From Halovivax ruber XH-70 (lineage in GTDB: Archaea; Halobacteriota; Halobacteria; Halobacteriales; Natrialbaceae), in assembly GCF_000328525.1 (NCBI RefSeq), contig NC_019964.1:186001-250000 (forward strand): 64,000 nt of DNA, given 5' to 3'. The notes beneath the pieces are model-generated. The model saw only the letters and a program-made list of their open reading frames with translations. It was not told the DNA's origin and searched no databases. A program made the position numbers and the translations under genes. Below are positions 3,537 to 17,350 of this stretch, in pieces; the first letter of the stretch is position 1; the number at the start of each line of letters is the position of its first letter.

Positions 3537-5099
3537 ATGACGATGGAATTCACCCTCCCCGACGTCGGCGAAGGCGTCGCCGAAGGCGAACTCGTCTCCT
3601 GGCTCGTCGAACCCGGCGACACGGTCAGCGAGGACCAGCCGGTCGCGGAAGTCGAGACCGACAAGGCCCTCGTCGAGGTCCCCTCACCGACGAACGGCAC
3701 CGTCCGCGAACTCCACTGGGCGGAAGGCGACGTCGTCCCCGTCGGCGACCTCTTCATCACGTACAACGTCGAGGGCGAGGACGATCAGGACGTAACGGAA
3801 CAGGGCGCCGATACCGCCTCCGCGGAGCAGGGTGGTGCGGACGCGGCCGACGATGCTGACGCGACCCCCAGCACCGAGTCCGAAGCGGGTGGCGAGGCCG
3901 ACGAATCGGGCGAGACCGACACGCCGTCCGGGCGCGTCTTCGCACCGCCGTCGGTCCGACGGCTCGCTCGCGAACTGGGCGTCGACATCGAGACGGTCGA
4001 GGGCACCGGCCCGAGCGGGCGACTGACCGAGGGCGACGTCCGTGCGGCAGCGGAGAGCGACGAATCGGCACCGGCCGGTACTGGTGACGAGCAGCCCACG
4101 GAGACGGGTGCCGACGCGTCGACCGCGCCGGAATCGACCCAGTCGGCCGCCACGCGCGGCGGCGCGACGGCACAGGTCGAATCGGCCGATCGCGAGCGGA
4201 CGCTGGCAGCACCCGCGACGCGCAAACTCGCCGAGGAGGAGGGCGTCGACCTGAACACCGTCCCGACCGACGAGGAGCGCGACGGCGAGGCGTTCGTCAC
4301 GCCCGAAGCGGTGACGGAGTACGCCCAGGCCCAGCGCCAGGCCCAGGAGGCAGACGCCGCGGCCGTCGCGACCGGCGAGACCGGTCCGCGAGAGCGGCGT
4401 GAGCCGTTCAAAGGCGTTCGCAAGACCATCGCCGACGCGATGGTCGAGTCGAAGTTCTCCGCGCCCCACGTCACCCACCACGACGAGGTCGACGTGACGA
4501 AGCTCGTCGAGACCCGCGAGCGACTGAAGCCGATCGCCGAGGAGCAGGGTATTCGCCTGACCTTCATGCCGTTCATCATGAAGGCCGTCGTCGCGGCGCT
4601 GGAGGAGTACCCCGAGATGAACGCGGTGATCGACGAGGACAACGAAGAGGTCGTCTACCGCAACTACCACAACATCGGTGTCGCGGCGGCGACCGACGTC
4701 GGCCTGATGGTGCCGGTCGTCGACGACGCGGACCACAAGGGTATGCTCCAACTCTCCTCGGAGATGAACGAACTGGTCCAGAAGGCTCGCGAGCGCACCA
4801 TCTCGCCCGACGAACTGCAGGGGTCGACGTTCACCATCACGAACATCGGCGGCATCGGCGGCGAGTACGCCACGCCGATCCTGAACTACCCCGAATCGGG
4901 CATCCTGGCCGTCGGCGAGATCAAGCGCAAGCCCCGCGTCGTCACCGACGAGAACGGCGAGGAGTCGATCGAGCCACGCTCGGTCATGACTCTCTCGCTG
5001 TCGTTCGACCACCGCCTCATCGACGGCGCCGTCGGCGCCCAGTTCACCAACGAGGTCATGAAGTACCTCGAAGAGCCGGAGCGGCTGCTGCTGGAGTAA
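3537..5099 (+). CDS. pdhC: Dihydrolipoamide acyltransferase (E2) with two subunit-binding-like domains
   Basis: This is the E2 core of the 2-oxoacid dehydrogenase complex. The N-terminal lipoyl domain (residues 1-80) has the lipoylated lysine at K43 in ETDKALVEV. An acidic Ala/Asp/Glu linker follows. A first peripheral subunit-binding domain spans about 133-172 (VFAPPSVRRLARELGVDI), and a second similar segment spans about 222-264 (TLAAPATRKLAEEEGVDL). The catalytic acyltransferase domain ends with the DHRLIDG motif (catalytic His) near residue 490. ATG 3537 follows the E1-beta stop by 2 nt; ATG 3543 is an alternative. The 520-residue length is on the long side because of the duplicated domain and linkers. 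Confidence 0.94.
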   Translation: MTMEFTLPDVGEGVAEGELVSWLVEPGDTVSEDQPVAEVETDKALVEVPSPTNGTVRELHWAEGDVVPVGDLFITYNVEGEDDQDVTEQGADTASAEQGGADAADDADATPSTESEAGGEADESGETDTPSGRVFAPPSVRRLARELGVDIETVEGTGPSGRLTEGDVRAAAESDESAPAGTGDEQPTETGADASTAPESTQSAATRGGATAQVESADRERTLAAPATRKLAEEEGVDLNTVPTDEERDGEAFVTPEAVTEYAQAQRQAQEADAAAVATGETGPRERREPFKGVRKTIADAMVESKFSAPHVTHHDEVDVTKLVETRERLKPIAEEQGIRLTFMPFIMKAVVAALEEYPEMNAVIDEDNEEVVYRNYHNIGVAAATDVGLMVPVVDDADHKGMLQLSSEMNELVQKARERTISPDELQGSTFTITNIGGIGGEYATPILNYPESGILAVGEIKRKPRVVTDENGEESIEPRSVMTLSLSFDHRLIDGAVGAQFTNEVMKYLEEPERLLLE

Positions 5100-5256
5100 C
5101 GCGGTAACTCATCTCGTCTGGTTTTTCGTCGTTCTTGTTCGGTGTGTGCCGAGGGACGAGCCTCTCTTTTCCGCTTCGCACCTATCCAGATTCAGGTCCG
5201 TTTACGAAACGTCGAAACCGAAGAAGGGTTCATCCCCGCCCGCGAAGCCCGCCGGT

Positions 5257-6477
5257 ATGGGAGACGTTGGGTTAGCTGACGTACGGCAGGCCCGCGAGCG
5301 GTTCGACGACGAGTCGGTGGTCAGAGAGACTCCGCTCGAACTGAACCGCTCGCTGTCGGCCATGGCAGACGCGACGGTCCACATGAAGATGGAGCACCTC
5401 CAGCGGACGGGCTCGTTCAAGACGCGGGGTGCGTACAACAAGCTGGTCCAGCTGGCCGAACGCGGTGACGTCTCGCGTGTCGTCGCGGCGAGTGCGGGCA
5501 ACCACGCCCAGGGTGTCGCCATCGCGGCGACGAAGAACGATATCGACTCGACGATCGTGATGCCGCGACACGCCCCGCAGGCGAAGGTCGACGCGACGCG
5601 CAGTTACGGCGGCGACGTCGAACTCGAGGGGACGGACTTCCAGGCGGCGATGGCCCACGCCCAGACCCTCACGGACGGCGACGACGTCGAGTTCGTCCAC
5701 GCCTACGACGACCCGGCGATCGTCGCCGGGCAGGGCACGCTCGGGCTGGAGATCTACGAGGCCCTGCCCGAGGTCGACACGGTTATCGTCCCGATCGGGG
5801 GCGGCGGGCTCATCGGCGGGATCAGCGCCGCACTCGCAGAGCTAGATCCCGAAATCCGGGTCGTTGGCGTGCAGGCCGAGGCGGCCGCGACGGTCCCCGA
5901 CAGTCTCGACAAGGGGATCCCCCAGTCGATCGACGACGCGAAGACCATCGCGGACGGCATCGCGACCGGCGGCATCTCCGAGCTGACGTTCGGCCTCATT
6001 CAGGAACACGTCGACGAGGTCGTCACCGTCTCCGACGACGAGATCGCCAGCGCAACGCTTCTGTTGCTCGAACGGGCCAAGCAACTCGTCGAAGGCGCCG
6101 GCGCGGCGTCGGTCGCGGCACTGCTCTCCGACGACCTCGACGTGGCGGACGAGACGGTCGTCCCGGTGCTCGGCGGCGGGAACATCGACATCTCGATGCT
6201 CCAGACGGTCCTCGACCACGCGCTGACGGACCGGGACCAGTTGCTCCGTCTTCGCGTGCGCATCGAGGACCAGCCGGGCAAGATGGAGGCCGTTTCGGGA
6301 CTCATCTCGGACCGGGGCGCGAACATCCGGACCGTCAGGCACGATCGCGCCGTCGGCGACCTCCAGGTCGGCGAGGCGTACCTCGTCTTCCAGGTCGTCA
6401 CCAGCGGGTCAGAGCACGCCCGGACGATCATCGAGGCGATCGAAGCCGCGGGCTACGAGGTTTCTCGGGTCAACTGA
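5257..6477 (+). CDS. ilvA: Threonine ammonia-lyase, PLP-dependent, with one ACT domain
   Basis: It deaminates threonine to 2-oxobutyrate, the entry to isoleucine synthesis or threonine breakdown. The PLP lysine is K55 in TGSFKTRGAYNK, the phosphate-binding SAGNHAQG follows, and a glycine-rich loop (PIGGGGLIGG) is present. A single C-terminal ACT domain (about 330-406; LRLRVRIEDQPGKMEAVSG) suggests allosteric control by an amino acid. The frame stays open upstream to 5146, but that stretch is basic and unlike the family, so ATG 5257 (MGDVGLADVRQA) is chosen, giving 406 residues. It sits between E2 and E3; its product 2-oxobutyrate is a potential 2-oxoacid dehydrogenase substrate, an inference from position only. 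Confidence 0.93.
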   Translation: MGDVGLADVRQARERFDDESVVRETPLELNRSLSAMADATVHMKMEHLQRTGSFKTRGAYNKLVQLAERGDVSRVVAASAGNHAQGVAIAATKNDIDSTIVMPRHAPQAKVDATRSYGGDVELEGTDFQAAMAHAQTLTDGDDVEFVHAYDDPAIVAGQGTLGLEIYEALPEVDTVIVPIGGGGLIGGISAALAELDPEIRVVGVQAEAAATVPDSLDKGIPQSIDDAKTIADGIATGGISELTFGLIQEHVDEVVTVSDDEIASATLLLLERAKQLVEGAGAASVAALLSDDLDVADETVVPVLGGGNIDISMLQTVLDHALTDRDQLLRLRVRIEDQPGKMEAVSGLISDRGANIRTVRHDRAVGDLQVGEAYLVFQVVTSGSEHARTIIEAIEAAGYEVSRVN

Positions 6478-6701
6478 TAGCAGGGCTGCGAATCGAATTT
6501 CTCGGCTGTGCGCTGGCGAGGGTCCAGTCTCTCGTTTCACTGGTCGTCGTTGGCGAGTGCGTGGGCCACTCACGTGTCGCGAATCCACACGCTGATTGCC
6601 GCCATCTGTGTGGTTCTGGCGGTAAATATGGCCTTTCGATGGACGGATGGGCACTAAATCTACAACCCGTTTCGAGTAACACAGGCGCGATACCTGCCCG
6701 T

Positions 6702-6709
6702 TTTTATAT
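6702..6709 (+). promoter_or_regulatory. TATA box of lpdA
   Basis: TTTTATAT lies about 26-33 nt before the lpdA ATG at 6735, the spacing expected for a leaderless archaeal transcript. E3 therefore appears to have a promoter separate from the E1/E2 operon. Confidence 0.6.
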
Positions 6710-6734
6710 CTCGACTGGATTTGTCTACGTAGCA

Positions 6735-8195
6735 ATGGTCGTCGGAGACGTAACTACTGGAACGGACGTGCTCGTGATCGGCGGCGGACCGGCGGGCTAC
6801 GCGGCTGCGATTCGCGCCGGACAACTCGACCTCGACGTAACGCTCGTCGAGAAGGACGCCTACGGCGGGACCTGCCTGAACCACGGCTGCATCCCGTCGA
6901 AGGCGCTGATTACGGCGACCGACGTGGCCCACGAGGCCCGTCACGCCGAGGAGATGGGGATCCACGCCGACCCGGCGGTCGACATGGCCGGCATGGTCGA
7001 CTGGAAGGACGGCGTGGTCGACCAGCTCACGAGCGGTGTCGAGAAACTCTGCAAGGCAAACGGCGTCTCCCTGATGGAGGGAACGGCGAAGTTCGCCGAC
7101 GAGAACTCGGTTCGTGTCTCCCACGGCGGGGAGGGCCAGGGCTCGGAATCCGTCGACTTCGAGCACGCGATCGTCGCCACGGGGTCGCGCCCGATCCAGA
7201 TCCCCGGCTTCGACTTCGCCGACGAACCCGTCCTCAGTTCGAAGGACGCCCTGTCACTCGAATCGGTCCCGGAATCGCTGGTCATCGTCGGTGCCGGCTA
7301 CATCGGGATGGAACTCGCCGGCGTCTACGCGAAGCTCGGCACCGACGTCACCATCGTCGAGATGCTAGACGAGATGCTCCCGGCGTACCCCGACGACCTC
7401 ACCCGACCGGTGGCCCAGCGTGCCGAGGAACTCGGCATCGACTTCCACTTCGGCTACAGCGCCGCCGAGTGGCAGGATCTGGGCGACGGGATCCGCGTCG
7501 TCGCCGAACCCGCGGACGCCGTCGCTAGCGACGGTGGTGCCGAAGCGGTCGAAGCCGACCCGATCGAACTCGATACGGAGAAGGTCCTCGTCGCGGTCGG
7601 CCGGCAACCGGTCTCCGACACGCTGGACATCGAGGCGGCCGGCGTCGAGACCGACGATCGTGGCTTCATCCCCACGGACGACCGCGGGCGGACGAACGTC
7701 GACCACATCCACGCGGTCGGCGACGTCGCGGGCGAGCCGATGCTCGCCCACAAGGGCATGTACGAGGGCGAGACCGTCGCAGAAGTCATCGCCGGCGAAC
7801 CCGCAGCGATCGACTACCAGGCGATGCCCGCCGTCGTCTTCACCGACCCGGAGATCGCGACCGTCGGGATGACCGAGGACGAGGTCACCGACGCTGGCTT
7901 CGAACCGCTCGTCGGGAAGTTCCCGTTCCGTGCCAGCGGACGCGCGCTGACGACCGGCCACGCGGACGGCTTCGTGAAAGTCGTCGCCGACGAAGAGAGT
8001 GGATTCTTGCTCGGTGCGTCCGTCGTCGGGCCCGAAGCCTCAGAGTTGCTCGGCGAACTCGGCCTCGCGGTCGAACTCGGCGCGACGCTCGAAGACGTCT
8101 CGGGTACGATCCACGCACACCCGACGCTCTCCGAGTCCGTGATGGAGGCCGCCGCGAACGCGCTCGACCAGGCGATCCACACGCTGAACCGGTAG
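6735..8195 (+). CDS. lpdA: Dihydrolipoamide dehydrogenase (E3)
   Basis: The flavoprotein reoxidises the E2 dihydrolipoyl group with NAD+. FAD binding is shown by VLVIGGGPAGYAAA (about residues 13-26), and the redox disulfide by C47 and C52 in GGTCLNHGCIPSK. NAD binding is seen in IVGAGYIGMELAG, and the C-terminal catalytic base region reads HAHPTLSE. An upstream in-frame extension to 6561 is unlike the family, and the TATA box at 6702 points to ATG 6735 with essentially no leader, giving 486 residues. It closes the oxoacid dehydrogenase gene set after ilvA. The same E3 may also serve a glycine cleavage system, which is family knowledge and not visible here. Confidence 0.95.
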   Translation: MVVGDVTTGTDVLVIGGGPAGYAAAIRAGQLDLDVTLVEKDAYGGTCLNHGCIPSKALITATDVAHEARHAEEMGIHADPAVDMAGMVDWKDGVVDQLTSGVEKLCKANGVSLMEGTAKFADENSVRVSHGGEGQGSESVDFEHAIVATGSRPIQIPGFDFADEPVLSSKDALSLESVPESLVIVGAGYIGMELAGVYAKLGTDVTIVEMLDEMLPAYPDDLTRPVAQRAEELGIDFHFGYSAAEWQDLGDGIRVVAEPADAVASDGGAEAVEADPIELDTEKVLVAVGRQPVSDTLDIEAAGVETDDRGFIPTDDRGRTNVDHIHAVGDVAGEPMLAHKGMYEGETVAEVIAGEPAAIDYQAMPAVVFTDPEIATVGMTEDEVTDAGFEPLVGKFPFRASGRALTTGHADGFVKVVADEESGFLLGASVVGPEASELLGELGLAVELGATLEDVSGTIHAHPTLSESVMEAAANALDQAIHTLNR

Positions 8196-8560
8196 GGAAC
8201 GCATCTTTTACCACAGATATTAGCCGACGTCATTGGTGCCTGCTACCCCGGAATACCCGTTCCTGCCACGATTCGCCTGCACGGACTCCGCCCGCGCGGA
8301 GGTTAGACTCCTCGCGTCTAGCGGCGCCTGCTGCGGCATTTTGTGACTGACCTACTACTCCAGATGGCTGCCGGAGCAGGCGAATACATTCACCAGCTCG
8401 GTTGCTGCTCTCGCCGGGGGAATTCGCTACACCCCTTGATACCACAGGCTTCAAACCGGGCCTGTTTGGGAAATCACCGGCTACGCTCGATCGACGTATG
8501 CTCTTCAAGACGATCTGCACTAACGCGCTGGTAGCCTTCCTACTGCCTCGGGTTCGGCGA

Positions 8561-8605
8561 CGAGGAACCCGCTACCCCCACCGCCGCAAGCGGCGGCGGT
8601 GATGA
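8561..8605 (+). repeat. GC-rich hairpin, possible IS200/IS605-type end
   Basis: GAGGAACCC is followed by a 9-bp perfect hairpin (CACCGCCGC 8579-8587 pairing with GCGGCGGTG 8593-8601) and GATGACC. This order recalls from memory the right ends of haloarchaeal IS200/IS605 elements (GAGGAA, hairpin, GATGTCA). No tnpA or tnpB gene is readable beside it, so at best it is a remnant. Confidence 0.3.
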
Positions 8606-8785
8606 CCAACCAGACGGTTCTCCCAACCACGAGTACACGCGGCAGTTGCCCATAATCGATGTTCACGGCTAGGACCCCTAATGTAGGATCCGGTTGGCTA
8701 TCTTCCACCCATCGTCCTTGGAAACACGATATATCCAACCAAAACCAAAGAAGGTCTAATAACATACAATAAATCTACACGTCTC

Positions 8786-8795
8786 TTTATATAAT
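8786..8795 (+). promoter_or_regulatory. Candidate TATA box for the halocin-like gene
   Basis: TTTATATAAT is the best TATA box upstream of the GTG at 8870. It would place the transcript start near 8820, giving a leader of about 50 nt. A weaker AT-rich block at about 8824-8836 is an alternative. Confidence 0.4.
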
Positions 8796-8869
8796 AATAC
8801 AAGATATTAGCTTCAAATAGTAAGTATTATGTATTTGCACAATAATGGCTATTTAGTGGTAGAGAAACT

Positions 8870-9817
8870 GTGAGTTCAGAGAACGTGAACAGACGAAATG
8901 TGCTAAAGGCAATAGCGGCCTCTGGAACGGGTACCGCTGTTGGGGGTAATGTCGCTGGTAAAAATAACCCAGAGGACAAATACACCCAGCCCTGGCCATT
9001 AACCGGGTCTGAAGGGCGTAAAACACTACGAAAGGCATTATCTGATCCTGATTTCGAAATGCTCACAAATGAATTCCAAGAAAATGGGTGGAGGGTCAGG
9101 TCATCTGACGCAATTCTTCTTCATGTACCGTTTACCGATCCGCCGGAGGACCCCAGTTTGGATTTCACGGGAATCAGCGATATGAGACTTGTAGTTTTAC
9201 CGGCCGAACCACGTGAAGGTGCCGATCAAGGGGCACTCGTTTGGACTTCTGAACAGTGGAACAACAATTTGACAACGTCTGTTGCCTATAAGGCAGAAAT
9301 AAATCTTCCACGGAACAATAAGTCTGTAGAATATCCTGACCACGAATTTGGCGCCTTAGACGCAAACTCTCTCAAGATATACAAGGTAAATGATGGAAAA
9401 ATCGACACGGGTGTTCGCAATGTCGACCCGCAAGAATTCAATTCTCCCTCTTCCCCCTCTTCAGCTAATAGTGGAGAGGCTGAATCATCTTGTGATTGTA
9501 AGATGCACACCCAAAACAATATCCCGCTTTCATGTTTGGTAGCTCTGAGCGTTGGCTTCTCAAGCATGTTCACTTCTTGCGGGGCGTGTACCATGCTCAA
9601 CCCTGTGGCATGTTGGGGGTGCTTCGCTTCTGTATCGGCCTCGGGAGCATCTTTGCCTTCGTGTGCTGAGGGCTCATCAGGGGTTGAATGCCGTGACTTT
9701 GATGATTTACCCGGTCGACAGTATGCTCATAGATGCCATATGTGTATAAACTTAGAACAAGAAGACTGCGAAGAGGATTTTGACGGTCCCCATTGTCGCT
9801 GCCGTGGAATGGGATAA
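8870..9817 (+). CDS. Halocin C8-like precursor: Tat signal plus 14-cysteine C-terminal domain
   Basis: This 315-residue protein starts with a Tat-type signal (R8-R9 in NRRNVLKAIAASGTG). The first 207 residues contain no cysteine. The last 108 contain fourteen (208, 210, 222, 237, 240, 248, 251, 265, 274, 289, 292, 300, 309, 311). The core C237-x2-C240-x7-C248-x2-C251, followed by a Gly/Ser/Ala-rich hydrophobic stretch, closely resembles the CxxC-x7-C pattern of halocin C8. That microhalocin is cut from the C-terminus of a Tat-exported precursor whose N-terminal part gives immunity. The GC content is clearly below the surrounding genes, a sign of transfer. A small membrane protein gene follows. 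Function is inferred from architecture; it could instead be another secreted Cys-rich protein. GTG 8870 is chosen; GTG 8885 is possible. Confidence 0.6.
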   Translation: MSSENVNRRNVLKAIAASGTGTAVGGNVAGKNNPEDKYTQPWPLTGSEGRKTLRKALSDPDFEMLTNEFQENGWRVRSSDAILLHVPFTDPPEDPSLDFTGISDMRLVVLPAEPREGADQGALVWTSEQWNNNLTTSVAYKAEINLPRNNKSVEYPDHEFGALDANSLKIYKVNDGKIDTGVRNVDPQEFNSPSSPSSANSGEAESSCDCKMHTQNNIPLSCLVALSVGFSSMFTSCGACTMLNPVACWGCFASVSASGASLPSCAEGSSGVECRDFDDLPGRQYAHRCHMCINLEQEDCEEDFDGPHCRCRGMG

Positions 9818-9881
9818 AGCGTAGGGATCCAATCACATAATAAATCATCTAAACAAAGGATTGAGTCAATATAACTATAGT

Positions 9882-10262
9882 ATGTTCCCAGCATTTTTCC
9901 TGCGCGAATTCCCTGATCCGATAACAGTATTTATTTATGCCCTCATGCTTCTCGGTTTTGGGCCTCTGGTACTACAGTCCGGAATCGTCTGGCCGTGGTT
10001 CATGGCCGGTACTATTTCAGCGATTCTCTTTCTCGGTCCTCTTGACAACTCGCGATTCGGAACCTGGGTGCGAGAGGGTGGAATCCTCGGATTCGCCGGC
10101 ATGATTGCGATCCTGTCACTCGTATTTGTAACACCAGTCCTGTACTTCGGTGCCTCCACGGGGGAGCTGCTTAATCTAGCGTCTGGCGGAATCCTGGGTG
10201 TACTTTTCCTCATCATAGCGACCGTTCTATACACACGTGTATCCACGGGTGAGCTTCCGTAA
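9882..10262 (+). CDS. Small multi-pass membrane protein next to the halocin-like gene
   Basis: A 126-residue, very hydrophobic protein with about four predicted membrane segments (starting near FIYALMLLGFGPLVL and VWPWFMAGTISAILF, with further ones around GILGFAGMIAILSL and GGILGVLFLIIATVL). No family is recognised. It lies 64 nt after the halocin-like gene on the same strand and is similarly AT-rich, so the two probably form one transferred unit. A role in export or self-protection is plausible by position only. ATG 9882 is chosen over the in-frame TTG at 9861, which directly abuts an AAAGGA stretch. Confidence 0.6.
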   Translation: MFPAFFLREFPDPITVFIYALMLLGFGPLVLQSGIVWPWFMAGTISAILFLGPLDNSRFGTWVREGGILGFAGMIAILSLVFVTPVLYFGASTGELLNLASGGILGVLFLIIATVLYTRVSTGELP

Positions 10263-10570
10263 CTACTCTCCTCGCCAAATATTGGTAGCAATCGGCCTTG
10301 GAACCGTTAATTTCCTACCCGCGCCGATGCAGGTGGTTCTAATCGACGGTATAGTGACGTACTGAACGCTCGCAACGGCTGGCTGTGCTGATCGTTATCG
10401 TGGTAAAATGGCGCCGGGCGAACAAATCGGCCTGGGTCACCCTTCGGCGCTGACGGGGTGGAACTAGGATCTCCACTAACGACTTGGTTTTGCGTTCCCG
10501 AGAACTCGAGATTGATGTCGCCGGTCCGACGATCTGCGGCCGATATCTGTTTTATCCACCAACCGTACGC
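10263..10570. other. Intergenic gap
   Basis: This 308-nt gap between convergent genes shows no gene, RNA or strong hairpin that can be supported. It marks the return from AT-rich to typical composition. Confidence 0.4.
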
Positions 10571-10864
10571 TCACTGCACGTACAGCGAGTACGCGATGAC
10601 GGTGAATCCGGCCAGAACGAGGACACTCTCGGCGAGCACACCGAGTTCGAGACTCACGTTGAGGATTTCGTGCAACAACCCGGCGAAGGCCAGCCCTAGC
10701 GTGACCAGGCCGAAGCCGCCAGCCAGGAGGCCGAGTGCACGCTGTCTCGTTCGCCGATACGCCTTCAACGCGAAGAAGGTGACGAGGCCGCCGACGATGA
10801 GGACCAGCGTCTTCACGACGGCGAGGGCGATCGTTACCTCCATGGTAGCTGTGTATAGACTCAT
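10571..10864 (-). CDS. Small membrane protein (DUF7521-like) coupled to an HTH regulator
   Basis: A 97-residue protein with three hydrophobic segments (IALAVVKTLVLIVGGLVTFF, LGLLAGGFGLVTLGLAFAGL, VLAESVLVLAGFTVIAYSLY). It resembles the haloarchaeal DUF7521 group, which habitually sits behind a winged-helix gene; this comes from recall of the family. The start ATG at 10864 overlaps the regulator's stop in a 4-nt ATGA, so both are translated from one message. Longer in-frame starts exist, but the overlap makes this one convincing. A membrane partner of the regulator, for example a sensor, is only a guess from the coupling. Confidence 0.7.
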   Translation of the reverse strand: MSLYTATMEVTIALAVVKTLVLIVGGLVTFFALKAYRRTRQRALGLLAGGFGLVTLGLAFAGLLHEILNVSLELGVLAESVLVLAGFTVIAYSLYVQ

Positions 10865-11247
10865 GTTTCTCTCCTGACTTCCGACCACAGATCGGCGAGG
10901 CGCTCGTCCGCCGTCCGGGCGGGACGGTCGAGGGCGACCTCGAGCTCGTGGTCCGGTCCGAGACTGATCCTGACCTCGTCGAACGCGACGATGTACTTAC
11001 TCGCGTGGTGGCCGTCTCGTCGTATCTCCGTCGTCTCCTCCAACAACGTGGCGTCAGTCAACTGCTCCAGCTTCCGATAGAGTGTCGACTGGGGGATCTC
11101 ACAGCGCGTCTGTATCTCCGACGCGGTCAGCGGCTCGTCTAACGCGGTAATGATCTCCCGACAGTCCGGATCGTCGAGAGCGGCACAGATGTCCGCGGTC
11201 GAGGGGCCATCCTCGGACCCGAACGGGTTCCGGACCATTCGCCCCAT
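10861..11247 (-). CDS. Winged-helix transcriptional regulator
   Basis: A 128-residue DNA-binding protein with an N-terminal winged helix-turn-helix. Residues about 20-80 read DPDCREIITALDEPLTASEIQTRC, then IPQSTLYRKLEQLTDATLLEE, a typical ArsR-like helix, turn, recognition helix and wing. The C-terminal half (RISLGPDHELEVALDRP) has a strand-rich look and no recognised domain. ATG 11247 is chosen over GTG 11256 because a GGGGGTGA Shine-Dalgarno stretch sits just upstream. It is coupled to the membrane protein gene through an ATGA overlap, and diverges from the rRNA operon across the rRNA promoter region. Targets are unknown. Confidence 0.8.
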   Translation of the reverse strand: MGRMVRNPFGSEDGPSTADICAALDDPDCREIITALDEPLTASEIQTRCEIPQSTLYRKLEQLTDATLLEETTEIRRDGHHASKYIVAFDEVRISLGPDHELEVALDRPARTADERLADLWSEVRRET

Positions 11248-11657
11248 GCTACTCACCCCCTGCCCATAGTCGCGTCGGTTACTGCCCGCTGGATACGTTC
11301 GCTCGGCCTGTCACCCGTGATATCTGGGGATCCCTCTCGTCGGGTCGATCTCACGGACTCCGTGTGAGTCTTTCCTCCTGGACCACACCGAACCATCTCG
11401 CATAACGAAGGGGCCTTACGCACGTGCGCCCCCGTTGTACACGCGCGGGTATCATCCGATCAGACCGTACCTGCGAGGGAGGGATGACCGATCGACCTCC
11501 GCCCGCGCGATATGCGTTCTCCGACACACTCTCTTCGACTACCGGCCACTGTCCGCTACAATTGCAACCCGACCAGCTGGCCTCTCAGTGGAGCCCCTCT
11601 CGATCGCCTCGCCGTTGAACCCGGTTCGGCATCCATAGTCGTCATGCACACCCACAT

Positions 11658-11666
11658 TCATATACT
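11658..11666 (+). promoter_or_regulatory. Possible most-upstream rRNA promoter
   Basis: TCATATACT resembles a TATA box, but it lacks the GC-rich context shared by the stronger promoters downstream. Confidence 0.3.
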
Positions 11667-11738
11667 GCTGAATGACTCGGGTTTCGTGTCCAACCGTACC
11701 ACGGTAGCGGGACCCGGAGCGCGATTCGTTCGACGGCC

Positions 11739-11745
11739 TTATATA
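11739..11745 (+). promoter_or_regulatory. rRNA promoter 1
   Basis: TTATATA is preceded by TTCGACGGCC, the TTCGA-TTATA arrangement typical of haloarchaeal rRNA promoters. The start site is expected around 11768. Confidence 0.7.
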
Positions 11746-11907
11746 GGCACCCGGGCTTCCAAATGAATGCGAAGGACGTGGCGCACCGCGCCACTCCCTC
11801 CGGCCGCGTTCCGGCACGGAGGCAGGAACCATCCGCCCTCGATCGACGGCTCGGCCGTCGCTCGGTAACGGAGTCCGACCCGGTCACGGCGACCGGGCAT
11901 CGATCCC

Positions 11908-11916
11908 CTTATATGC
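11908..11916 (+). promoter_or_regulatory. rRNA promoter 2
   Basis: CCTTATATG preceded by GGCATCGATC repeats the layout of promoter 1 about 170 nt downstream. Confidence 0.65.
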
Positions 11917-11987
11917 AACCGGGGTCAAGGATCGGATCCACGATGGCGTCGCCGGCTGCGAAATCCGGCGCGCCTCGATCCGTTGCC

Positions 11988-11995
11988 CTTAAGTG
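11988..11995 (+). promoter_or_regulatory. rRNA promoter 3
   Basis: CCTTAAGT preceded by CGATCCGTTG. The TTAAGT core is shared with promoter 4 and with the internal promoter before 23S. Confidence 0.6.
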
Positions 11996-12078
11996 TTCGA
12001 GAGGGCTCGGATGGAATGCAAACGGATGATCGCCGGCGCGTTGGATGTGCCGGTGATTGGACGGCTCGGGTCCGAAGG

Positions 12079-12087
12079 GGTTAAGTA
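12079..12087 (+). promoter_or_regulatory. rRNA promoter 4
   Basis: GGTTAAGTA preceded by GGTCCGAAG is the promoter nearest the 16S gene and would give a leader of about 180 nt. Confidence 0.6.
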
Positions 12088-12191
12088 CCTCTCACGGATT
12101 ACGAATACGTCCGAAGGAGATGAGGATTCCACCCCTGCGGTCCGCCGTTAAGATGGGATCTGATGTTAGCCTCGACAGTTCGGTGACGCTC

Positions 12192-12227
12192 GATCGGTCG
12201 GTTCCGATCTGGTCGCCGAACGGACCA
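12192..12227 (+). other. 16S processing stem, 5' strand
   Basis: This stretch pairs with 13798-13834 beyond the 16S 3' end: CGGACCA (12221-12227) with TGGTCCG (13798-13804), and GATCGG at the far end with its complement. The archaeal splicing endonuclease cuts bulge-helix-bulge motifs in such stems to release pre-16S. Confidence 0.7.
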
Positions 12228-12264
12228 CGCAATGTGTGAGTGTGCGATACCATTCACCGCCAGA

Positions 12265-12284
12265 CCCCGACAGTTTTGTCGGGG
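12265..12284 (+). other. Perfect leader hairpin just before 16S
   Basis: CCCCGACA and TGTCGGGG form an 8-bp perfect stem around a GTTT loop, ending 6 nt before the 16S 5' end. A role in 16S 5' maturation or folding is likely but unproven. Confidence 0.7.
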
Positions 12285-12290
12285 AATAGC

Positions 12291-13764
<1,474 letters not shown>

Positions 13765-13774
13765 CAGACCGGGA

Positions 13775-13834
13775 CTGGGGCGACGCCCCAGCCCACTTGG
13801 TCCGCTTTCGCGCGATCGCCGTTCTCGGCCGATC
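13775..13834 (+). other. 16S 3' flank: hairpin and processing stem 3' strand
   Basis: CTGGGGC-GAC-GCCCCAG (13775-13791) forms a tight hairpin. TGGTCCG and the following bases (13798-13834) pair back to 12192-12227 to close the 16S processing stem. Confidence 0.65.
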
Positions 13835-13881
13835 GGGCACCTTAGAACTGTCGAGGCTAGAGCCCCTCGTGATCGAGGGGT

Positions 13882-13953
13882 GGGCCCATAGCTCAGTGGG
13901 AGAGTGCCTCCTTTGCAAGGAGGATGCCCTGGGTTCGAATCCCAGTGGGTCCA
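13882..13953 (+). tRNA. tRNA-Ala (anticodon TGC)
   Basis: The 72-nt gene folds as a standard cloverleaf. The acceptor GGGCCCA pairs with TGGGTCC, the anticodon loop is CTTTGCAAG with anticodon TGC, and the T-arm is TGGGTTCGAATCCCA. The discriminator is A and CCA is not encoded. Its place in the 16S-23S spacer is the classic euryarchaeal arrangement, and it is co-transcribed with the rRNAs. Unlike tRNA-Cys and tRNA-Lys in this window, no copy of its 3' end recurs downstream. Confidence 0.98.
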
Positions 13954-13979
13954 TGACTCGGACGATCGCGGATCGTGCC

Positions 13980-13988
13980 CCTTAAGTG
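13980..13988 (+). promoter_or_regulatory. Internal rRNA promoter before 23S
   Basis: CCTTAAGTG in a GC-rich setting matches the TTAAGT core of promoters 3 and 4. Haloarchaeal rRNA operons are known to have an internal promoter in the spacer between tRNA-Ala and 23S. Confidence 0.55.
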
Positions 13989-14094
13989 GGGGACGGCCCG
14001 ATGATCGAATCCGAAGAACCGATGCACCACTCCGCGCAAGCGTGAGTGGGAAGGGTTAATGCACGCCTGCAGTCACAGGCGTTTGCAGATGAGA

Positions 14095-14114
14095 CCGTGT
14101 GTACGTGTAGTCCA
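14095..14114 (+). other. 23S processing stem, 5' strand
   Basis: Twenty bases (14095-14114, starting CCGTGTGTACG) pair with 17147-17166, with one G-U wobble. This closes the long 23S stem where the splicing endonuclease acts on a bulge-helix-bulge. Confidence 0.85.
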
Positions 14115-14186
14115 GGCGTCCACTGGACCCGTTCTCCGGGTTACTGATCGCTGTCTTCGGACAGCGTGATTTCCGATCCGACGAAC

Positions 14187-17104
<2,918 letters not shown>

Positions 17105-17146
17105 ATTCGCATGGATCGGACCCGGAGTTCGGGTCCAGGCGCGAAC

Positions 17147-17166
17147 TGGACTACACGTATACACGG
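17147..17166 (+). other. 23S processing stem, 3' strand
   Basis: TGGACTACACGTATACACGG is complementary to 14095-14114 with a single G-U pair. It defines the 3' side of the 23S precursor. Confidence 0.85.
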
Positions 17167-17170
17167 TTTT

Positions 17171-17217
17171 GCCACCGATCTCGGAGGTAGGTCGTGGTTC
17201 GATTCCACGAGTCGGCG
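17171..17217 (+). other. tRNA-like element directly before 5S rRNA
   Basis: CGTGG-TTCGATT-CCACG (17193-17209) is a perfect T-arm with a 5-bp stem and 7-nt loop. It is followed by a 7-nt acceptor-like strand AGTCGGC and a discriminator-like G that ends exactly at the 5S start. The 5' side beginning GCC at 17171 pairs imperfectly. In Haloferax volcanii the 5S 5' end is cut by tRNase Z at such a tRNA-like structure, which fits here. Confidence 0.65.
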
Positions 17218-17339
17218 TTAAGGCGGCCAGAGCGGTGGGGCAACACCCGTACCCATTCCGAACACGGAAGTTAAGCCCACCTGCGTATCGGCAAGTACTG
17301 GCGTGGGAGACCCGCTGGGACCCCCGATTCGCCGCCTCC
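17218..17339 (+). rRNA. rrf: 5S ribosomal RNA
   Basis: The 122-nt gene begins TTAAGGCGGCCAGAGCGGTG and ends GCCGCCTCC, whose ends pair. The conserved internal block CCGAACACGGAAGTTAAGC is present. It is the last rRNA of the operon and is followed at once by a strong terminator. Confidence 0.97.
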
Positions 17340-17350
17340 ACTCATATTCA

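What the first reader, a model, noticed from the sequence alone, without database searches (positions are those of the whole stretch)
8690..10262. Halocin C8-like antimicrobial precursor with a 14-cysteine tail in an AT-rich patch
The 315-residue Tat-exported protein has no cysteine in its first 207 residues and fourteen in the last 108. The core CxxC-x7-CxxC is close to halocin C8, but the Cys number is higher than halocin C8's ten and the tail after the core is longer, ending CxxC...C...CRC. A small multi-pass membrane protein follows. The low GC content indicates transfer. It could be a new branch of microhalocins, with the N-terminal part as immunity domain.
Basis: partly seen in the sequence, partly recalled or inferred. 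Interest (0 to 1): 0.75.

Follow-up and report, generated by a model that had tools for sequence, protein, structure and literature searches.

The report
Haloarchaeal secreted cysteine-rich peptide-toxin precursor
A salt-loving archaeon carries, in a small AT-rich stretch missing from its close relative, a gene for an exported cysteine-rich protein that looks like the precursor of a peptide weapon built like halocin C8 but with a different peptide, followed by a small membrane-protein gene that may protect the producer.

Summary
In detail: the ORF at 8870-9817 encodes 315 aa, with 14 cysteines all in the last 108 residues (p = 1.7e-7). The protein is not a halocin C8: it matches neither TIGR04449 (HalC8 peptide) nor PF22862 (HalC8 N-domain). 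It belongs to a related group of haloarchaeal Tat precursors without a Pfam or NCBIfam model. They share an N-domain, whose first 43-61 columns align weakly with the ProC8 N-domain; 13 of 35 precursors share a core C-x14-C-x2-C-x5..12-C-x2-C-x11..17-C, against 0 of 8 HalC8-type ones. The precursor and the following 133-aa membrane-protein gene lie in a 2.38-kb stretch absent from the sister genome. A small membrane-protein gene follows 11 of 15 precursors of the group (controls 2 of 73 and 8 of 126); three loci have a broken precursor beside an intact membrane gene. Most likely: an exported peptide-toxin precursor with the neighbour as immunity protein. Against this, later loci support the pairing less well, and the window's own membrane protein is of a widespread family not otherwise seen beside precursors. 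No activity was tested.

The parts
8197..10572 (.). Stretch present here and absent from sister genome G071, where only 130 bp lie between the same two flanking genes
   Evidence: blastn of window 5000-13000 against L120: window 8196 joins L120 5385, window 10573 joins 5516, flanks 94% identical
8408..8598 (+). Remnant of a resident gene (390-aa Tat-type ORF in G207) upstream of the precursor
   Evidence: 70.5% identity over 200 columns to L122 4438-4637; ORF
8786..8799 (+). TATA-box-like stretch TTTATATAATAATA upstream of the precursor
   Evidence: read by eye; not tested
8870..9817 (+). 315-aa cysteine-rich secreted precursor
   Evidence: homologues
8870..8950 (+). Tat-type signal (NRRNVLKAIAAS...)
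   Evidence: RR invariant in relatives; models sub-threshold
8993..9121 (+). Residues 42-84, segment weakly shared with the N-domain of ProC8
   Evidence: hhalign E 3.5e-4 over 43 columns, score 31 against decoys of 15.4 or less
9491..9814 (+). Cysteine-rich C-terminal domain, residues 208-315, 14 cysteines; proposed mature peptide
   Evidence: release site inferred, not shown
9533..9664 (+). Double-CxxC core, residues 222-265 (C-x14-C-x2-C-x7-C-x2-C-x13-C)
   Evidence: same type of core in 12 other precursors of 35 rows examined, window included
9861..10262 (+). 133-aa membrane protein, candidate immunity gene
   Evidence: position, same insert; family membership

Best explanation
A two-gene antagonism cassette. 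The precursor is exported by Tat as a folded protein, with the N-domain keeping the disulfide-rich C-terminal domain inactive; a protease then cuts in the Ser/Pro-rich linker before residue 208 and frees a peptide of about 108 residues that harms related haloarchaea. The downstream small membrane protein protects the producer. Shown here: architecture, shared N-domain, conserved double-CxxC core, gain or loss of the segment as one unit, recurrent membrane-gene neighbour in the group. Inferred: cleavage, disulfides, killing, immunity.
For: Leave-one-out N-domain profile (Tat removed) finds the window at E 3.8e-4, best decoy 0.12; leave-one-out C-domain profile finds it at 6.5e-6. Core spacing in 13 of 35 precursors, 0 of the 8 HalC8-type rows; strict core in 6 of 20000 shuffles of the window's own tail. 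Alignment of the N-domain with that of ProC8 beyond decoys. Small membrane gene on the same strand, -30 to +200 bp: 11 of 15 group loci plus 1 convergent; controls 2 of 73 and 8 of 126. Membrane gene intact beside a broken precursor in G202, G230:C30 and G106. Empty site in G071. Nine subtilase-family matches in the genome, so processing proteases are available.
Against: No activity data. In 7 group-like loci found later, only 1 of 7 has the membrane gene downstream on the same strand, 2 more convergent; any orientation within 350 bp gives 7 of 7, but that loose test also gives 16 of 57 controls. Among low-GC control genes the strict rate is 4 of 19. The window's membrane protein belongs to a widespread family (leave-one-out E 1.7e-14) that is unrelated to the other partners and was not seen beside precursors elsewhere. 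In G005/G202 the membrane gene shows only mild constraint (dN 0.056, dS 0.095). C-domain shuffles that keep the cysteine positions of the training sequences score close to the window.
Confidence: 0.64

Rival explanations
1. ProC8-like single-gene system: the N-domain is cut off and itself gives immunity, as reported for HalI; the membrane gene is a bystander.
For: Weak alignment of residues 42-84 with the start of the ProC8 N-domain; ProC8 loci L101 and L099 have no small membrane gene beside them; proteins of about 200 aa with a similar N-domain and no cysteine-rich part exist (L153, L160, L161, L162). The window's membrane protein is of a general family.
Against: The group profile reaches ProC8 N-domains only at E 0.035, near decoys; PF22862 does not match; the membrane-gene neighbour is enriched in this group.
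Confidence: 0.2
2. Secreted metal-binding or redox protein using the two CxxC pairs.
For: Two CxxC pairs plus a further CxxC and two CxC.
Against: No Pfam, NCBIfam or PDB sequence match; the core is hydrophobic and rich in Ala, Gly and Ser; tails vary freely; patchy distribution (35 of 391 genomes at 1e-6).
Confidence: 0.08
3. Secreted signal peptide or adhesion factor rather than a toxin, carried on a mobile segment.
For: The same architecture would serve; nothing here tests activity.
Against: Peptide diversity on one N-domain, and a neighbouring membrane gene kept beside broken precursors, fit toxin and immunity better.
Confidence: 0.08

Closest known systems
Halocin C8 / ProC8 (TIGR04449, PF22862)
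   Same: Tat-type signal, N-domain, linker, cysteine-rich C-terminal domain; weak similarity right after the signal; similar C-x2-C-x7-C spacing. ProC8 is 283 aa, Tat-exported, and gives HalI and the 76-aa HalC8 (PMC11509114, passages).
   Different: No match to either HalC8 model; 14 instead of 10 cysteines; double-CxxC core after a C-x14 arm; longer tail; low GC; membrane gene beside it.
HmHapP / HFX_0892 of Haloferax mediterranei (PMC12893001; abstract, outline and passages seen)
   Same: Secreted haloarchaeal precursor activated by an extracellular serine protease.
   Different: There the N-terminal helical fragment is active; here the C-terminal cysteine-rich domain is the proposed peptide. 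No sequence comparison was made.
Bacteriocins with a small membrane immunity protein encoded next to them (recalled, general knowledge)
   Same: Layout of secreted peptide plus small membrane protein.
   Different: A 300-aa Tat precursor; no dedicated exporter gene seen next to it.
Predicted archaeal antimicrobial peptide families of Makarova et al. 2019 (mBio.00715-19; not held; recalled only)
   Same: As recalled, it expands the halocin C8 family and predicts further archaeocins; it may already list members of this group.
   Different: Could not be checked.

Membership tests
Halocin C8 (ProC8) | C-terminal HalC8 domain, TIGR04449 | tested here: not met
   no match up to E 10; own HalC8 peptide profile does not list it; positive control L005 E 1.9e-15
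Halocin C8 (ProC8) | N-terminal domain PF22862 | tested here: not met
   no match up to E 10; control L005 E 1.7e-48; only a 43-61 column profile-profile alignment
Halocin C8 (ProC8) | Tat signal | tested here: inconclusive
   models below cut-off, RR invariant in relatives
Halocin C8 (ProC8) | ten cysteines in the mature peptide | tested here: not met
   fourteen
Halocin C8 (ProC8) | antimicrobial activity and N-domain immunity | not testable with these tools
   needs experiments
Double-CxxC precursor group (defined here) | core C-x14-C-x2-C-x5..12-C-x2-C-x11..17-C | tested here: met
Double-CxxC precursor group (defined here) | shared N-domain | tested here: met
   leave-one-out E 3.8e-4, best decoy 0.12
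Double-CxxC precursor group (defined here) | small membrane-protein gene next to it | tested here: met
   133 aa, 43 bp downstream; unrelated in sequence to the other partners
Zinc ribbon / rubredoxin-like metal binders | sequence match to a known metal-binding family | tested here: not met

The most novel reading that the evidence does not exclude
Haloarchaea hold a combinatorial secreted-peptide weapon system: one Tat-exported N-domain carries many unrelated cysteine frameworks, each paired with an exchangeable small membrane immunity protein, and the two-gene cassettes travel between species by homologous recombination inside a neighbouring gene, leaving a duplicated piece of that gene on either side.
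Probability: 0.3. Interest if true: 0.75.

Novelty: new variant of a known kind. Interest (0 to 1): 0.52.

Why it matters
Few archaeal peptide antibiotics are known at gene level. A group with its own cysteine framework, no Pfam or NCBIfam model, and a candidate two-gene immunity layout gives many testable candidates, and broken precursors next to intact membrane genes make the immunity idea directly testable.

Tried and rejected
Direct halocin C8 membership: rejected. A direct repeat flanking the window's own cassette, as seen at other loci: none found. A second copy of the upstream region 8190-8860 in the genome: none. Resident origin of the membrane gene, suggested by L050 lying about 3 kb from the HTH orthologue in G361: rejected, since the similarity is only 26% and both genes are absent from G071. 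Close relatives in viral contigs, plasmids and, for the window protein, genome contigs: none. PHROGs: nothing for the window proteins. Single-sequence AlphaFold model: pLDDT 31, unusable; no fold search was made. Sigma-70 type promoter scan: nothing, and not apt for archaea. Literature: Makarova 2019 and Mei 2008 are not held; searches for halocin C8, halocin C8-like families, haloarchaeal cysteine-rich precursors and Halovivax ruber with halocin (listings) showed no paper on this group in title or abstract.

Limits of the counts: the first 15 loci suggested the membrane-gene idea, so they are not an independent test; later loci are weaker. Several loci are close relatives (G032, G338, G162; G005, G202; G000b, G361) and are not independent. 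G308a lacks an ATG, GTG or TTG before its Tat motif and may itself be broken. Three further interrupted or stop-bearing precursors (L147, L150, L163) were not examined for an intact membrane gene. Membrane segments were called by a simple hydropathy window, and control genes by a home-made gene caller.

Full report
What is there. The ORF at 8870-9817 (+) encodes 315 residues from a GTG start. Fourteen cysteines all lie in residues 208-315 (p 1.7e-7 for a random spread). GC of the ORF is 0.48 in surroundings of about 0.65. A 133-aa ORF with three predicted membrane segments follows 43 bp after the stop. Upstream lies a gene that reads as a dihydrolipoamide dehydrogenase (named from its sequence by recall, no call), downstream a DUF7521 gene and a helix-turn-helix gene and a 16S-tRNA-23S-5S operon (12291-17340). 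The window lies in a 3,223,876-base single-contig genome; from memory this length fits Halovivax ruber XH-70, which no call confirmed.

Not a halocin C8. The window protein matches neither TIGR04449 nor PF22862 up to E 10. Real ProC8 among the loci fetched (L005, 283 aa) matches both strongly (E 1.9e-15 and 1.7e-48), so the models work. PMC11509114 (passages) gives ProC8 as 283 aa, Tat-exported, split into HalI and a 76-aa peptide.

A group of its own. A search of 391 genomes of the class with the window protein gave 70 genomes at E 0.1 or better, many of them over the Tat signal only. A profile of six relatives found 41 of 125 genomes of the family at 1e-3, of which 14 places in 13 genomes have E below 1e-16, including a second locus in this genome (G000:C1:2198730-2199668). 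A ten-member profile found 35 of 391 genomes of the class at 1e-6. With the Tat part removed and the window left out, the N-domain profile still finds the window at 3.8e-4, best decoy 0.12; the C-domain profile finds it at 6.5e-6, although shuffles that keep the cysteine positions of the training sequences come close. Thirteen of 35 precursors examined carry the core C-x14-C-x2-C-x5..12-C-x2-C-x11..17-C, against at most 0.43% of shuffles of any one protein; none of the eight HalC8-type rows carries it (of the eight, two were checked against TIGR04449, the rest are classed by similarity). None of the six other group members scanned has a Pfam match up to E 0.1.

Link to ProC8. Profile-profile alignment of the group N-domain with the ProC8 N-domain covers 43 to 61 columns (E 3.5e-4 and 1.7e-4, probability 37 and 50, scores 31 and 33; four reversed and ten column-shuffled decoys at most 15.4). 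Single profiles do not separate the two from decoys (0.035 and 0.23). The aligned piece lies at the start of the N-domain, where, by the title of Mei et al. 2008 (seen only in a reference list), a helix-loop-helix motif is essential for HalI immunity. The single-sequence fold puts helices at 46-57 and 60-71, but at pLDDT 31 that is no support.

A mobile segment. In sister genome G071 (flanks 94% identical) only 130 bp lie between the two flanking genes, so window 8197-10572, with both genes, is absent there. G043, G207 and G361 have other ORFs beside the DUF7521 gene, and none of the four has the precursor there. A remnant of the G207 gene lies at 8408-8598. Loss in G071 cannot be excluded, but low GC favours gain.

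The neighbour. In the 15 group loci a small (45-160 aa) ORF with two or more membrane segments lies -30 to +200 bp downstream on the same strand in 11, plus one convergent (G308a); in all 27 precursor loci listed, 15 have it on the same strand. Controls: 2 of 73 genes and 8 of 126 in a wider set, 4 of 19 among low-GC genes. In seven later group-like loci (L148, L149, L151, L152, L154, L157, L158) the strict test gives 1 of 7, with two convergent. Any orientation within 350 bp: 17 of 21 group loci, 3 of 6 with other cysteine frameworks, 2 of 7 HalC8-type, 16 of 57 controls. In G202 the precursor is a truncated remnant with two stops while its 97-aa membrane gene is intact; G230:C30 has a frameshift and G106 an in-frame stop, each with an intact membrane gene. 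Constraint on the membrane gene is mild. Exceptions: G064 has a 65-aa ORF with one predicted segment and G168 a 49-aa one; G118 has none that passes. In the convergent G308a locus the partner is related to that of G005 (29.5% identity, E 2.4e-11), which suggests a kept pair. The window's own membrane protein is different: it belongs to a widespread haloarchaeal family (leave-one-out E 1.7e-14) and is unrelated to the other partners. Of the 19 other loci brought in, the scan flagged two ORFs by its crude rule (L033, L040); neither reads as a precursor.

Reading. The best account is an exported precursor of a disulfide-rich peptide that acts on related haloarchaea, with the membrane protein as candidate immunity. 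Export, cleavage before residue 208, killing and immunity are inferred. Nine subtilase matches show that processing proteases exist in the genome.

A further pattern. Eight of 26 precursor loci are flanked by a direct repeat of 40 bits or more, against 10 of 638 left-right pairs from different loci and 0 of 42 shifted centres. In G106 (282 bp, 96%) and G361 (296 bp, 84%) the repeat is the 3' end of the neighbouring gene. In this genome's second locus the corresponding gene lies on the other side of the cassette than the full copy in G361, as expected if both copies once flanked it. This suggests movement by recombination in the neighbour gene; the window locus shows no such repeat.

Noticed in passing
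L085 3560-3840/5262-5540; L086 3238-3530/5072-5358; L092, L082, L084, L089, L093, L104: Precursor cassettes bracketed by a direct repeat, in several cases a duplicated 3' end of the neighbouring gene; 8 of 26 loci against 10 of 638 cross-locus pairs and 0 of 42 shifted centres.
   Followed up: partly
L087 4025-4969 (-), G000:C1:2198730-2199668: A second precursor of the same group in the window's genome, 10 cysteines, with its own 93-aa membrane-protein partner.
   Followed up: partly
L153, L160, L161, L162: About 200-aa Tat proteins with a similar N-domain and few cysteines (0 to 4): possible stand-alone N-domain proteins.
   Followed up: no
L092, L099, L101: Three HalC8-type genes lie close to a gene of a membrane protein ending in a similar C-terminus (RFDWYALE, CFDRYTLD, RFDRYTLE), perhaps a preferred insertion site.
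   Followed up: no
L147 (G113:C1:1277169-1280289): A precursor matching in two parts 2.4 kb apart, as if interrupted by an insertion.
   Followed up: no
window 8408-8598: Remnant of a Tat-type gene that is intact in G207 at the same site.
   Followed up: partly
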